From assembly GCF_000013205.1 (NCBI RefSeq), contig NC_007775.1, positions 806,001 through 870,000 on the forward strand: a DNA stretch of 64,000 bases. The letters run 5' to 3'. Shown here piece after piece: positions 55,962 through 59,485 of the stretch. The stretch comes from Synechococcus sp. JA-3-3Ab (GTDB lineage Bacteria > Cyanobacteriota > Cyanobacteriia > Thermostichales > Thermostichaceae). Positions within the stretch are counted from its first letter, which is position 1; each line of letters starts with the position of its first letter. A program made the position numbers and the translations under genes. The notes beneath the pieces were generated by a model. That model was not told the DNA's origin, did not search any database, and saw only the letters and a program-made list of their open reading frames with translations.

Positions 55962-56052
55962 CAATCCCTTCGGAGATTGCCAGAGAGCGTCTTTGAACGG
56001 CGCTGGCCAAAAGTTGAGGCTAAAGTTAAAGGTGAGTGGAGGGTTGCTGGTC

Positions 56053-57051
56053 GTGCCGATGAGGGATCCCCGGCCCGGCTTGGTTCAACAGGCCCATCTC
56101 CAGCGTCAGGCGAGCTGCCCCGTGCCCAGCCTGAGCCAGTTGGTGGGGCAATTTTTGCAGGAGCGGCAGCGGGATCTGGCCCCGGCCAGCCGCCGCACCT
56201 ACCGCATTGCCCTGGAACAGTTTGCCAAAACTTGCCCGGTGCCGCTGCCTCAGGTGCAGCCGTCCCACGTTCAGTCTTTTTTAAACAGCTTGAAGGGGCG
56301 TCCATTTCGCAACCGCTCCGGCCAGTGGGTTCATCCGCCCGCCTCTCCCGCCACCTACAACCTCAAGCGGCTGGCGCTGCAGCAGTTTTTTGAGTGGGCC
56401 AGCCAACGGGGCTACTTTCCAGATCCCTTGCCCACCCAGGCGATTCGGCCCGCCCGCCTGCCCGCCCGTCTGCCTCGCGACCTGGATCGGCTGTTGTTGC
56501 AGCGGGTTCTGCAGCGGGCCCAGAGCCATTCTCTGCGCTATGCGGCCTTGATCCGCCTGCTGCTGGAGTGCGGGCTGCGGGCACAGGAGCTGTTGGACTT
56601 GACGGTGCAGGATTTTCAGATCAGCCCTGAGGGATCCCTGTTGGAGGTGCGCTGTGGCAAGGGCAGCAAACCCCGCGCTGTGGCGGTCGGGGATCCCCTC
56701 TCCGAGCTGCTGCAACAATATCTGAGCCGAGAACGGGGCCCGTGCGCGCCGACGGATCCCTTGTTTGTCTCCCAATCCCGCTGCCCGGCCTACCGGGGCC
56801 GTCCCCTCACCTACGATGGCCTACGTCATATTGTGCTCAAGCTTACCGAGCCCGAGCCGGGCCACCAAACCCCCCACCAGTTTCGCCACAGCTTTGCCAC
56901 CTTGCTGCTGGATCGCGGCGTTGCCCCCGAACACATCCAACACCTGCTGGGCCATACGACTGCCGCCATGACGATGCGCTACACCCAGCGGGCCAACTTG
57001 AGAGCAGCTATTGCCCATTCCCGCGCGATCTTGGATCAGGGCTTGATCTAG
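56053..57051 (+). CDS. Tyrosine recombinase, XerC/D-like
   Basis: About 332 residues. N-terminal core-binding domain (SLSQLVGQFLQERQRDLAPASRRTYRIAL) and catalytic domain with the RHRHY set: Arg in GLRAQEL, HQFRHSF, LLGHTTAAM and the Tyr in MRYTQ. XerC/D-like proteins resolve chromosome dimers; related integrases mobilise islands. The GTG at 56053 has GGAGGG nine bases upstream; ATG 56059 is also in frame. Its neighbour is an AT-rich two-gene module, so an integrase role is possible, but no att sites were found. Confidence 0.85.
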   Translation: MPMRDPRPGLVQQAHLQRQASCPVPSLSQLVGQFLQERQRDLAPASRRTYRIALEQFAKTCPVPLPQVQPSHVQSFLNSLKGRPFRNRSGQWVHPPASPATYNLKRLALQQFFEWASQRGYFPDPLPTQAIRPARLPARLPRDLDRLLLQRVLQRAQSHSLRYAALIRLLLECGLRAQELLDLTVQDFQISPEGSLLEVRCGKGSKPRAVAVGDPLSELLQQYLSRERGPCAPTDPLFVSQSRCPAYRGRPLTYDGLRHIVLKLTEPEPGHQTPHQFRHSFATLLLDRGVAPEHIQHLLGHTTAAMTMRYTQRANLRAAIAHSRAILDQGLI

Positions 57052-57214: not shown

Positions 57215-58228
57215 TCAAGTTACACGCTGGAGAGGAAGGTAGAGCACATGTTCTCTCTCCTTTCCCATAGGCACCTGCGAGCCAAGGCTGGCCTTCTGCT
57301 GCTCCAACCAGATGATCAGATGTCTGTTCTCAGGGTAGTATTCCAGAACATACTTAATGAAGTCATCAATTGTACATGGCTTGCTGAAACCTCCCATCCA
57401 CTGATGAAAGTGGCAATGCACTTCGTCGGCTATGGTAATCAGGTTGGAGAGATTCGCTGCAAGCTTTGGATAGTGCGCTTCAGAGTAGAGATGATGAACC
57501 GTTAGGCTACTGGCTGCTTTTCGAGTAACTCTACAAAGATTTTTATCCCTTTTTCTTGCAAGATCTTTTGCCCTTTCTATCTCTCTTTGTCGATCCTGGA
57601 TTTTCTTGACGATTACCTGAATTTGAGGTTCAATGCGTTCGCTAACATATTGACACCAGTCTTTTCTGTGGTTTTGCTTGAGAACCTCTCCCATAACCTT
57701 GGCAAGCTCATAGATACCTCGCAAAGAGAGGTAAACAGTGTCATCATTACCAAAACGTGTGTAATGAACGTCTTTGATTAACTTACTTTGCTTCGATGCA
57801 AGCTCAAGCGCCTTCTTAAGGTAGTCAGTTCGAGTTCTAAAGATCATCACAACATCTCGACGAGATAGCCAAAACTGATCTTGTCTTTTGACCAGAGAGG
57901 AGCTGTTTTGAAGGATCCTGTAATCTACCAGAGCTTTCTGCTTCTTGCGATGCTCTTCCTTGAACCAATTCCTAATGCTTGTACCTGTAGAGGATTTGCA
58001 ACCTTGCTCTGATCGAGACCTTAAAAAGGATAAAATGGCATAAGCGCCGGACCGCGTGTATTCCCTTAGCCCAGAACTTTTGTTGATAACACGATAGTCT
58101 TTACCTTCCACCAGTTTCCATGCATCATCGGGGATACTGTCAAAGTGAGCTTCAATCTCTCTGAGTTCCTCAAGGCTGATACCCAAGAAGTTGGCGAGCT
58201 TGTTTGAGGAAACATAGACTATAGCCAT
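57215..58228 (-). CDS. HNH-like nuclease-type protein, function unknown
   Basis: 337 residues, AT-rich and clearly different in codon use from neighbours. The N-terminal 170 residues hold two apparent helix-turn-helix-like parts (VSSNKLANFLGISLEELREI; LSLRGIYELAKVMGEVL). The C-terminal part resembles an HNH endonuclease: CRVTRKAASSLTVHHLY (His 245, His 246), NLSNLITIADEVHCHFHQW (Asn 259/262, His 271, 273, 275). Only one Cys of the usual zinc pairs is near, so metal binding may differ. The start overlaps the upstream J-domain gene by 10 bp, so they are one operon. I do not recognise a named system. Confidence 0.65.
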   Translation of the reverse strand: MAIVYVSSNKLANFLGISLEELREIEAHFDSIPDDAWKLVEGKDYRVINKSSGLREYTRSGAYAILSFLRSRSEQGCKSSTGTSIRNWFKEEHRKKQKALVDYRILQNSSSLVKRQDQFWLSRRDVVMIFRTRTDYLKKALELASKQSKLIKDVHYTRFGNDDTVYLSLRGIYELAKVMGEVLKQNHRKDWCQYVSERIEPQIQVIVKKIQDRQREIERAKDLARKRDKNLCRVTRKAASSLTVHHLYSEAHYPKLAANLSNLITIADEVHCHFHQWMGGFSKPCTIDDFIKYVLEYYPENRHLIIWLEQQKASLGSQVPMGKEREHVLYLPLQRVT

Positions 58229-58821
58229 TGCTCAAACTTCTCCGTAAGGCTTTTGTAGAAAAGAGTCAATCGCTGGAAAATTTTGTCATCTCCCGTCGGA
58301 GAATCGGGATGGTAAATCTTGCTCAGGCGATAAAAAGCAGCTTTGATGTCTTCATCGGTAGCTCGATCAGGGTCAAGCCCAAAAACCCGCCAAGGCAAGT
58401 CGTACTTGAAGATGTTGATCCCATTGATGCAGCCATACCCCTCTTCTCCCTCTTCGTTGGGAAGGATCCCGATGTGCTGACGATAAATGCGCTCCAAATC
58501 ATCTATGTTGGATAAGTTCAGCTTGCCCATACCACTGGTTGCCAGTCTGAAGCTGGCTGATTTTCTCAGCTCGGCTGCGTTTTTAACGCCAAAGTGGTTG
58601 TAAATGGCTTTCTGCAGCTCTTTGACAGACAGCCGGGGCGGTGGCTGTAGCTGCCTGACTACAAACCGGGCAAAATTCTCTAGGAGCTCCTTAGAAATGC
58701 CATAAGTATCCGAAAGACGCTGGATTTCTGCGGCAATCGCCACCTGCGGGTCGGGCCCAGCTCCTTCTTTTGAGGTTGTCCTGGTTGTTTTGGTTTTTGT
58801 GCTGGTGGCTTTTCTGGGCAC
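58219..58821 (-). CDS. J-domain protein paired with HNH-like gene
   Basis: 200 residues from a GTG with AGGAGA six bases upstream. The N-terminus is a Thr/Lys-rich tail (RKATSTKTKTTRTTSKEG). The C-terminus is J-domain-like: PWRVFGLDPDRATDEDIKAAFYRLSKIYHPDSPTGDDKIFQRL, with the HPD tripeptide at 171-173 that stimulates Hsp70. The middle (LSVKELQKAIYNHFGV ... GKLNLSNIDDLERIY) is unassigned. No DnaK is nearby. The J domain is at the end of the chain, unlike DnaJ. The operon promoter lies at 58887-58916. Confidence 0.75.
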   Translation of the reverse strand: MPRKATSTKTKTTRTTSKEGAGPDPQVAIAAEIQRLSDTYGISKELLENFARFVVRQLQPPPRLSVKELQKAIYNHFGVKNAAELRKSASFRLATSGMGKLNLSNIDDLERIYRQHIGILPNEEGEEGYGCINGINIFKYDLPWRVFGLDPDRATDEDIKAAFYRLSKIYHPDSPTGDDKIFQRLTLFYKSLTEKFEQWL

Positions 58822-58868
58822 GGTTTCTCCTCAAATCACCAATGCCAAGTGCAAACCTGCACAAAACT

Positions 58869-58916
58869 CACAGGCTGCCTGTGAACTTATCTGCACGATG
58901 AAGCAGAGAATTTCAA
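58869..58916 (-). promoter_or_regulatory. Promoter and dyad operator of the J-domain/HNH operon
   Basis: On the minus strand TTGAAA (58916-58911) and AGATAA (58892-58887) are 18 bp apart, a sigma-70-like promoter. The predicted transcription start falls beside or within the dyad CACAGGC-T-GCCTGTG (58869-58883). This layout suits an autorepressed promoter. The dyad lies about 50 bp before the GTG start. Confidence 0.4.
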
Positions 58917-59146: not shown

Positions 59147-59485
59147 TCAGCTTTTGGGGATCAGCCGCTTGGGACAGGCAGCACGGATGTGGGATTCGCT
59201 CAGGTCGGGCATGAGGGCCAGGGCCCGTTGAGCATCGATTTGCGCTTCGCACACCGCCTCCAGCACCTGTTCGGCCAGAAGGGAAAGGGGCATATCGGCG
59301 GTTTGCTCAGGATCGGTATCCTCTCTAATTTGTCGAACTCCCACCGGCGGGGGAGGCAACACCAGCGGTGCCGCCTGCGGCGGCAAGGTGGTGGAGGTAC
59401 CCACCTCCAACTGCGCTTCGGCCAGAGCCACACCGCGCCCTGCCACCCCACCGGGAAAAGGACTCTCCCATCCAATGTCAAACAA
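59147..59485 (-). CDS. Hypothetical protein downstream of ycf23
   Basis: 112 residues from a TTG that overlaps the ycf23 stop by a few bases. The N-terminal half is Pro/Val-rich, the C-terminal half helical and acidic (LSLLAEQVLEAVCEAQIDAQRALALMPDLSESHIRAACPK). No family is recognised. The overlap with ycf23 and protein-like end support it, but the start is weak. Confidence 0.4.
   Translation of the reverse strand: MFDIGWESPFPGGVAGRGVALAEAQLEVGTSTTLPPQAAPLVLPPPPVGVRQIREDTDPEQTADMPLSLLAEQVLEAVCEAQIDAQRALALMPDLSESHIRAACPKRLIPKS

What the first reader, a model, noticed from the sequence alone, without database searches (positions are those of the whole stretch)
57215..58916. AT-rich operon: J-domain protein plus HNH-like protein, with its own promoter and dyad operator
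Two overlapping genes differ in base composition from everything around them. One carries a terminal J domain with HPD; the other joins two helix-turn-helix-like parts to an HNH-like C-terminus. A promoter with a 15-bp dyad at the expected transcription start precedes them, and a tyrosine recombinase is next door. A nuclease paired with a chaperone adaptor under tight repression resembles a defence or addiction module. That role is inference; the motifs, overlap and dyad are seen.
Basis: partly seen in the sequence, partly recalled or inferred. Interest (0 to 1): 0.72.

Follow-up and report, generated by a model that had tools for sequence, protein, structure and literature searches.

The report
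Mobile J-protein plus HNH-nuclease gene pair
A cyanobacterial chromosome carries a compact pair of genes, a helper-chaperone (J-domain) protein and a DNA-cutting (HNH-type) protein, that recurs together in about one in six cyanobacterial genomes sampled, sits in unrelated places, and swaps the front part of the cutter between strains; it looks like an undescribed defence- or conflict-type module, but its function has not been tested.

Summary
Two genes overlapping by 10 bp encode a J-domain protein (HPD invariant in 33 homologues) and an HNH protein (H245, H246, N262 and H275 invariant in 31). They are AT-rich (46% GC against 60%). The "promoter plus dyad operator" does not hold up, and the neighbouring tyrosine recombinase is not part of the module.

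In 388 cyanobacterial genomes, 73 of 74 full-length HNH proteins have the J gene directly upstream; the 74th starts 76 bp from a contig end. The pair occurs in 67 genomes, in unrelated contexts, as a compact unit of about 1.8 kb under purifying selection. J often survives when HNH is broken; the reverse was not seen.

New findings: (i) the HNH protein starts with two homologous, winged-helix-like repeats; (ii) in one genus the first repeat exists as two discrete alleles inside an otherwise 95-100% identical locus, a swap resembling that of restriction recognition domains; (iii) the J protein's middle domain is shared with phage proteins, some with LPD1 or zeta-toxin domains and one encoded next to a portal gene.

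Best reading: an undescribed nuclease/co-chaperone conflict module. Defence function is inference: no PADLOC match, no neighbourhood enrichment.

The parts
58219..58821 (-). J-domain protein (200 aa, GTG start), first gene of the operon
   Evidence: ORF and GTG start conserved as ATG in orthologues; Pfam DnaJ 3.4e-7; 33-member family with invariant HPD; AF2 pLDDT 74 overall, about 85-90 in the J domain
58402..58632 (-). middle domain of the J protein (residues about 64-140, signature CINGINIF)
   Evidence: conserved in the family (mean pairwise identity 51%) and shared with phage proteins in IMG/VR contigs, profile E down to 2e-23 without the J domain
58237..58401 (-). J domain (residues 141-195, HPD at 171-173)
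57215..58228 (-). HNH protein (337 aa), second gene, overlaps the J gene by 10 bp
58004..58228 (-). repeat D1 of the HNH protein (residues 1-75), winged-helix-like; exchanged between alleles in a Microcystis-like genus
   Evidence: homologous to D2; allele swap in g29
57644..57919 (-). repeat D2 of the HNH protein (residues 104-195)
   Evidence: weak Bro-N and phage antirepressor matches
57323..57556 (-). HNH nuclease domain (residues 225-302), invariant C232, H245, H246, N262, H275, C285
57059..58923 (.). whole module: segment lacking a counterpart at the flanks in the genus members without the pair; beyond its ends the sequence is genus-conserved
55993..57051 (+). XerC-like tyrosine recombinase, neighbour, NOT part of the module
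   Evidence: Pfam 5e-30; adjacent to the pair only in the three pair-bearing genomes of this genus, and present elsewhere in the three genomes that lack the pair

Best explanation
This is a two-gene, horizontally exchanged cyanobacterial module made of an HNH nuclease effector with its own dedicated Hsp70 co-chaperone. Shown by sequence: near-obligate pairing, intact J and HNH signatures, purifying selection, compact module boundaries, presence/absence differences within genera, and recombinational replacement of the nuclease's N-terminal repeat or of the whole nuclease gene inside an otherwise conserved locus. Inferred mechanism: the N-terminal tandem winged-helix-like repeats recognise a target (most likely DNA), the HNH domain cuts DNA, and the J protein binds the nuclease through its middle domain and uses the host DnaK to keep it folded and inactive, or to activate it on a trigger. 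The most likely biological role is a defence- or conflict-type module whose specificity drifts by domain swapping, as in restriction systems, but without a methyltransferase in the operon.
For: 73 of 74 full-length HNH proteins have J directly upstream on the same strand, in 67 of 388 genomes; the 74th begins 76 bp from a contig end. Contexts share no neighbour across genera. J and HNH trees agree (Mantel r 0.75, 0 of 2000 permutations). dN/dS 0.08-0.40. J intact with HNH broken, cut short or not found in G478, G490, G587, G566, G527:C26, G022, G121; the reverse was not seen. Within-genus presence/absence with compact boundaries in two genera. Allele swap of D1 in g29: 56 of 235 differences in D1 against 19 of 701 in the rest of the gene, Fisher 4e-21, both types in at least 4 genomes and not following genomic location. 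Second case, L071 against L080: the HNH gene is 62-90% identical between flanks mostly 90-100% identical. J middle domain shared with phage proteins, among them one with LPD1, one with a zeta-toxin domain and one next to a portal gene. Precedent for a host J protein acting in phage sensing by a bacterial immune protein: bNACHT25 (PMC12169576).
Against: No PADLOC match; PADLOC hits among neighbours are similar in kind and number to random regions of cyanobacterial genomes, mostly the same ones. No relatives of the pair in phage or plasmid records. No nuclease activity, DNA binding or DnaK interaction has been tested. The HNH model is unusable (pLDDT 44, two sequences). D1 swapping could also reflect protein rather than DNA recognition.
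Confidence: 0.5

Rival explanations
1. Toxin-antitoxin (addiction) module: the HNH protein is a DNase toxin, the J protein is its antitoxin or antitoxin chaperone, keeping it inactive with DnaK; the pair maintains itself rather than defending the host.
For: Upstream small gene, overlapping or nearly touching downstream nuclease; the nuclease is never intact without J while J persists after nuclease loss; patchy, mobile.
Against: Not on any plasmid in the collection. In L071/L080 the nuclease gene was replaced by a divergent allele while most of J was kept, which is awkward for a tight cognate pair, although the J middle domain is also more divergent there. No operator-like dyad conserved. The counts of broken copies are small.
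Confidence: 0.22
2. Selfish homing-type HNH endonuclease that spreads by cutting target sites, with J as accessory folding factor.
For: Compact unit without a transposase, free-standing HNH with HTH-like repeats, inserted at many places.
Against: Homing needs a conserved target site, but flanks differ completely between genera; no intron or conserved host gene is interrupted; a J partner would be unusual for homing enzymes (own knowledge).
Confidence: 0.1
3. Ordinary chromosomal DNA-metabolism or regulatory pair (repair, competence or transcription control) that has been lost repeatedly.
For: Chromosomal only, purifying selection, weak similarity of the repeats to Bro-N/antirepressor domains.
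Against: Only 17% of genomes, half of this genus, family-discordant tree and two divergent copies in some genomes, allele replacement at fixed loci.
Confidence: 0.13
4. Degenerate phage remnant without function.
For: J middle domain shared with phage proteins.
Against: Purifying selection, invariant catalytic residues, no phage genes recurring around it, HNH protein absent from the viral collections searched.
Confidence: 0.03

Closest known systems
Toxin-antitoxin and toxin-antitoxin-chaperone modules
   Same: two overlapping genes, putative regulator first and putative toxic nuclease second; effector not seen without partner; patchy distribution
   Different: the partner is a J-domain co-chaperone rather than a DNA-binding antitoxin or SecB-like chaperone; no conserved operator dyad; not on plasmids; no toxicity shown
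Restriction systems with exchangeable recognition domains (type I HsdS, type IIG, type IV)
   Same: nuclease with recognition parts that are swapped by recombination between strains; patchy and horizontally transferred
   Different: no methyltransferase or ATPase in the operon; carries a J protein; DNA specificity not shown
bNACHT25 with host DnaJ (PMC12169576)
   Same: a J protein is needed for a bacterial antiphage response
   Different: there the J protein is the host's general DnaJ and the effector is a NACHT protein; here the J protein is dedicated and encoded with the nuclease
Phage polyvalent proteins (PMC5512222) carrying LPD1 or zeta-toxin domains
   Same: share the J protein's middle domain plus J domain
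   Different: large phage proteins, in the inspected cases without an HNH partner; that paper does not mention DnaJ
HNH homing endonucleases with HTH/NUMOD modules (own knowledge)
   Same: HNH domain plus DNA-binding-like repeats
   Different: conserved J partner, no conserved insertion site

Membership tests
J-domain (DnaJ/Hsp40) proteins | J domain with intact HPD | tested here: met
   PF00226 above its gathering score; HPD in 33 of 33; fold match to J domains, probability 1.0 though E only 0.07
J-domain (DnaJ/Hsp40) proteins | stimulates DnaK ATPase | not testable with these tools
   needs biochemistry
HNH endonuclease superfamily | conserved H-N-H catalytic motif | tested here: met
   H245, H246, N262, H275 invariant in 31 of 31; 17 of 30 members match phrog_144 HNH endonuclease
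HNH endonuclease superfamily | beta-beta-alpha metal fold | tested here: inconclusive
   AF2 model of the region below pLDDT 50, only two sequences allowed
HNH endonuclease superfamily | DNA cleavage | not testable with these tools
   needs assay
Known antiphage systems (PADLOC) | match to a defence-protein model | tested here: not met
   0 families for either protein
Known antiphage systems (PADLOC) | location in defence islands | tested here: not met
   143 neighbours against 143 random genes, no clear excess
Type II toxin-antitoxin | near-obligate two-gene operon, effector not found alone | tested here: met
Type II toxin-antitoxin | autoregulatory operator upstream | tested here: not met
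   dyad not conserved, family-wide count at chance
Type II toxin-antitoxin | toxicity neutralised by partner | not testable with these tools
   needs expression assay
Homing endonuclease | insertion at a conserved target site | tested here: not met
   unrelated flanks between genera
Restriction-modification | methyltransferase in the system | tested here: not met
   none recurs next to the pair

The most novel reading that the evidence does not exclude
A new kind of bacterial immune module in which a dedicated J protein acts as sensor or guard through the host Hsp70 machinery. Because its middle domain is shared with phage J proteins, some of them encoded in or near virion genes, it could respond to phage assembly proteins or to the phage J protein itself. 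It would then release an HNH DNase whose recognition repeat is diversified by domain swapping between strains.
Probability: 0.2. Interest if true: 0.9.

Novelty: new variant of a known kind. Interest (0 to 1): 0.7.

Why it matters
No paper found in the library searched describes a near-obligate J-protein/HNH-nuclease operon, and no family library used here names either gene beyond the generic domains. If it is a defence or addiction module, it would make the Hsp70 system a built-in part of one, occurring in roughly a sixth of sampled cyanobacteria, including bloom-forming Microcystis-like genomes. The natural D1 allele swap gives a ready experiment on what the nuclease recognises, and the shared domain in phage proteins gives a testable link to the phage side.

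Tried and rejected
Dyad/promoter operator: the dyad is broken in both orthologues and dyads are at chance across the family; no sigma-70-like hit before the pair. Tyrosine recombinase as part of the element: adjacent only in this genus. Defence-island test: no clear enrichment. Phage or plasmid carriage of the pair: none found. Sequence matches of the HNH protein to solved structures were spurious (ESCRT, interferon, dynein). Structure of the HNH protein: only two sequences were permitted, model unusable. Homing at a conserved site: flanks unrelated. A second J+HNH pair with an unrelated N-terminus (L090) was found, but a search with its nuclease returned no other full-length relative among 388 genomes. 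Phage contigs as cyanophages: a neighbouring TyrS was only 47-51% identical to cyanobacterial ones, so host not established. The genome-contig scan used patterns from the window protein alone, so distant relatives outside Cyanobacteria were not tested.

Full report
What is there. On the minus strand of a cyanobacterial chromosome (G000, 2.93 Mb; the nearest named relative is a MAG of 'Synechococcus sp. M44_DOE_062'), two genes lie at 58219-58821 (200 aa, GTG start) and 57215-58228 (337 aa), overlapping by 10 bp. They are AT-rich: 46.2% GC against 60.4 +/- 3.1% elsewhere in the window, and no other stretch of that length in the window is as low. The first protein ends in a J domain (Pfam PF00226, E 3.4e-7, above its gathering score). 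The second matches HNH endonuclease families of PHROGs at residues about 200-280 (E 1.4e-4). PADLOC and NCBIfam have no model for the HNH protein, and PADLOC none for the J protein.

Both proteins are real and look active. Across cyanobacteria I collected 31 HNH homologues with both repeats and 33 J homologues. HPD is invariant in 33 of 33; in the HNH protein C232, H245, H246, N262, H275 and C285 are invariant in 31 of 31, and H271 in 30. Member by member, 17 of 30 match phrog_144 'HNH endonuclease', best 5e-9, and 8 match Pfam HNH_2. dN/dS within genera or families is 0.08-0.40 for both genes.

The HNH protein begins with a tandem repeat. Profiles of residues 3-76 (D1) and 104-190 (D2) align over 63 columns with probability 92% and E about 7e-7, while neither aligns with the HNH part. 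The low-confidence model gives both the order strand-helix-helix-strand-strand-helix, and D2 has weak Bro-N/antirepressor matches. I read D1 and D2 as winged-helix-like recognition repeats (inference).

The pair is near-obligate. With family profiles, 388 genomes of the class gave 74 full-length HNH proteins; 73 have the J gene immediately upstream on the same strand, and the last starts 76 bp from a contig end. Coding spacing in the first set is mostly -10 to +38 bp. 67 genomes (17%) carry a full pair. The J and HNH trees agree (Mantel r 0.75; 0 of 2000 permutations). When a copy is damaged it is the nuclease that goes: the J profile is full-length while HNH is interrupted, frameshifted, truncated or not found in G478, G490, G587, G566, G527:C26, G022 and G121, with no case of the reverse. 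The numbers are small, the nuclease is the longer gene, and some of these truncations may be contig ends.

It is a mobile, compact module. No neighbouring gene recurs across genera; some genomes hold two divergent copies, and members of one taxonomic family do not always cluster. In this genus 3 of 6 genomes have the pair. Comparing flanks, genus-conserved sequence stops at window 57058 on one side and resumes at about 58924 on the other, so the pair-specific segment is about 1.87 kb; in the pair-less genomes the two flanking segments are not adjacent, so the module sits at a rearrangement breakpoint.

The recognition part is swapped. In g29 the D1 coding region comes in two types, 76-77% identical in DNA between types and at least 97% within, while J (96-99%), the rest of HNH (94-99%) and the flanks (mostly 95-100%) are nearly uniform. 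L075 (type B) and L076/L077 (type A) are at the same chromosomal site; L074 (B) and L078 (A) are elsewhere. For L076 against L075 there are 56 differences in 235 D1 positions and 19 in 701 for the rest of the gene (Fisher 4e-21). A second case is L071 against L080: flanks mostly 90-100% identical and J about 95% outside its middle domain, but the HNH gene 62-90% (J dS 0.30, HNH dS 1.6). Such local replacement inside a conserved locus is typical of parts that decide specificity, such as restriction target-recognition domains (own knowledge).

A phage connection on the J side. A scan of IMG/VR with the J profile found about 36 contigs whose proteins share the middle domain (signature CINGINIF) as well as the J domain; the middle domain alone gives E down to 2e-23. 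These are longer phage proteins (324-932 aa). Of five tested with Pfam, one carries LPD1 (large polyvalent protein-associated domain) and one a zeta-toxin domain, and on one contig the J gene directly follows a portal gene. No HNH partner was found near them. Polyvalent proteins are described as phage-delivered conflict proteins (PMC5512222), a paper that does not mention DnaJ. The hosts of these contigs are not established.

What failed. The promoter/dyad claim: the 17-bp dyad is present here but broken in both orthologues, dyads upstream of J genes are at chance (14 seen, 10.2 expected), and no sigma-70-like site precedes the pair. The recombinase next door is a genus-level neighbour. The defence-island test was negative: among 143 neighbours PADLOC mainly found two cytosine methyltransferases and a few others, no more than in 143 random genes (type IIG enzymes, Mads-like kinases).

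How it most likely works. Shown: the pair, intact signatures, selection, mobility and allele swapping. Inferred: D1/D2 recognise a target, the HNH domain cuts DNA, and the J protein contacts the nuclease and recruits DnaK to fold, silence or trigger it. The evolutionary behaviour is that of a conflict or defence module, with addiction the next best reading. A bacterial immune protein, bNACHT25, is known to need host DnaJ for phage sensing (PMC12169576), so a J protein in a sensing role is plausible, but no function has been tested here.

Limits. The survey covers Cyanobacteria only; distant relatives elsewhere were not searched. The paper searches covered open-licence full text only and found no description of the pair.

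Noticed in passing
IMG/VR loci L137-L172 (e.g. L139:1452-4223, L157:5518-7635, L141:3817-6588): Phage proteins of 324-932 aa carrying the same middle domain plus J domain; L139 has an LPD1 domain, L157 a zeta-toxin domain, and in L141 the gene directly follows a portal gene; no HNH partner found.
   Followed up: partly
L090:8359-10084 (G080): A second adjacent J (222 aa) + HNH (348 aa) pair with an unrelated nuclease N-terminus and a very divergent J protein; no other full-length relative of the nuclease in 388 genomes.
   Followed up: partly
window 59156-59447: 292 bp next to the pair are 96% identical to a second copy in the same genome (G000:C1:1241205-1241496), where more of the ancestral locus remains: a duplicated fragment at a rearrangement breakpoint.
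   Followed up: partly
L071 and L080, J gene residues about 62-128: Where the HNH gene was replaced by a divergent allele, the J middle domain is also more divergent than the rest of J, hinting that this domain contacts the nuclease.
   Followed up: no
L076:8382-8525: A repeat of about 144 bp present in many near-identical copies in g29 genomes (MITE-like) lies immediately upstream of the module in G095.
   Followed up: no
L130, L131, L133 upstream of the g29 site: In g29 genomes without the pair at this site, a different shared segment of about 3 kb occupies the place next to the conserved 352-aa gene; its genes were not identified.
   Followed up: no
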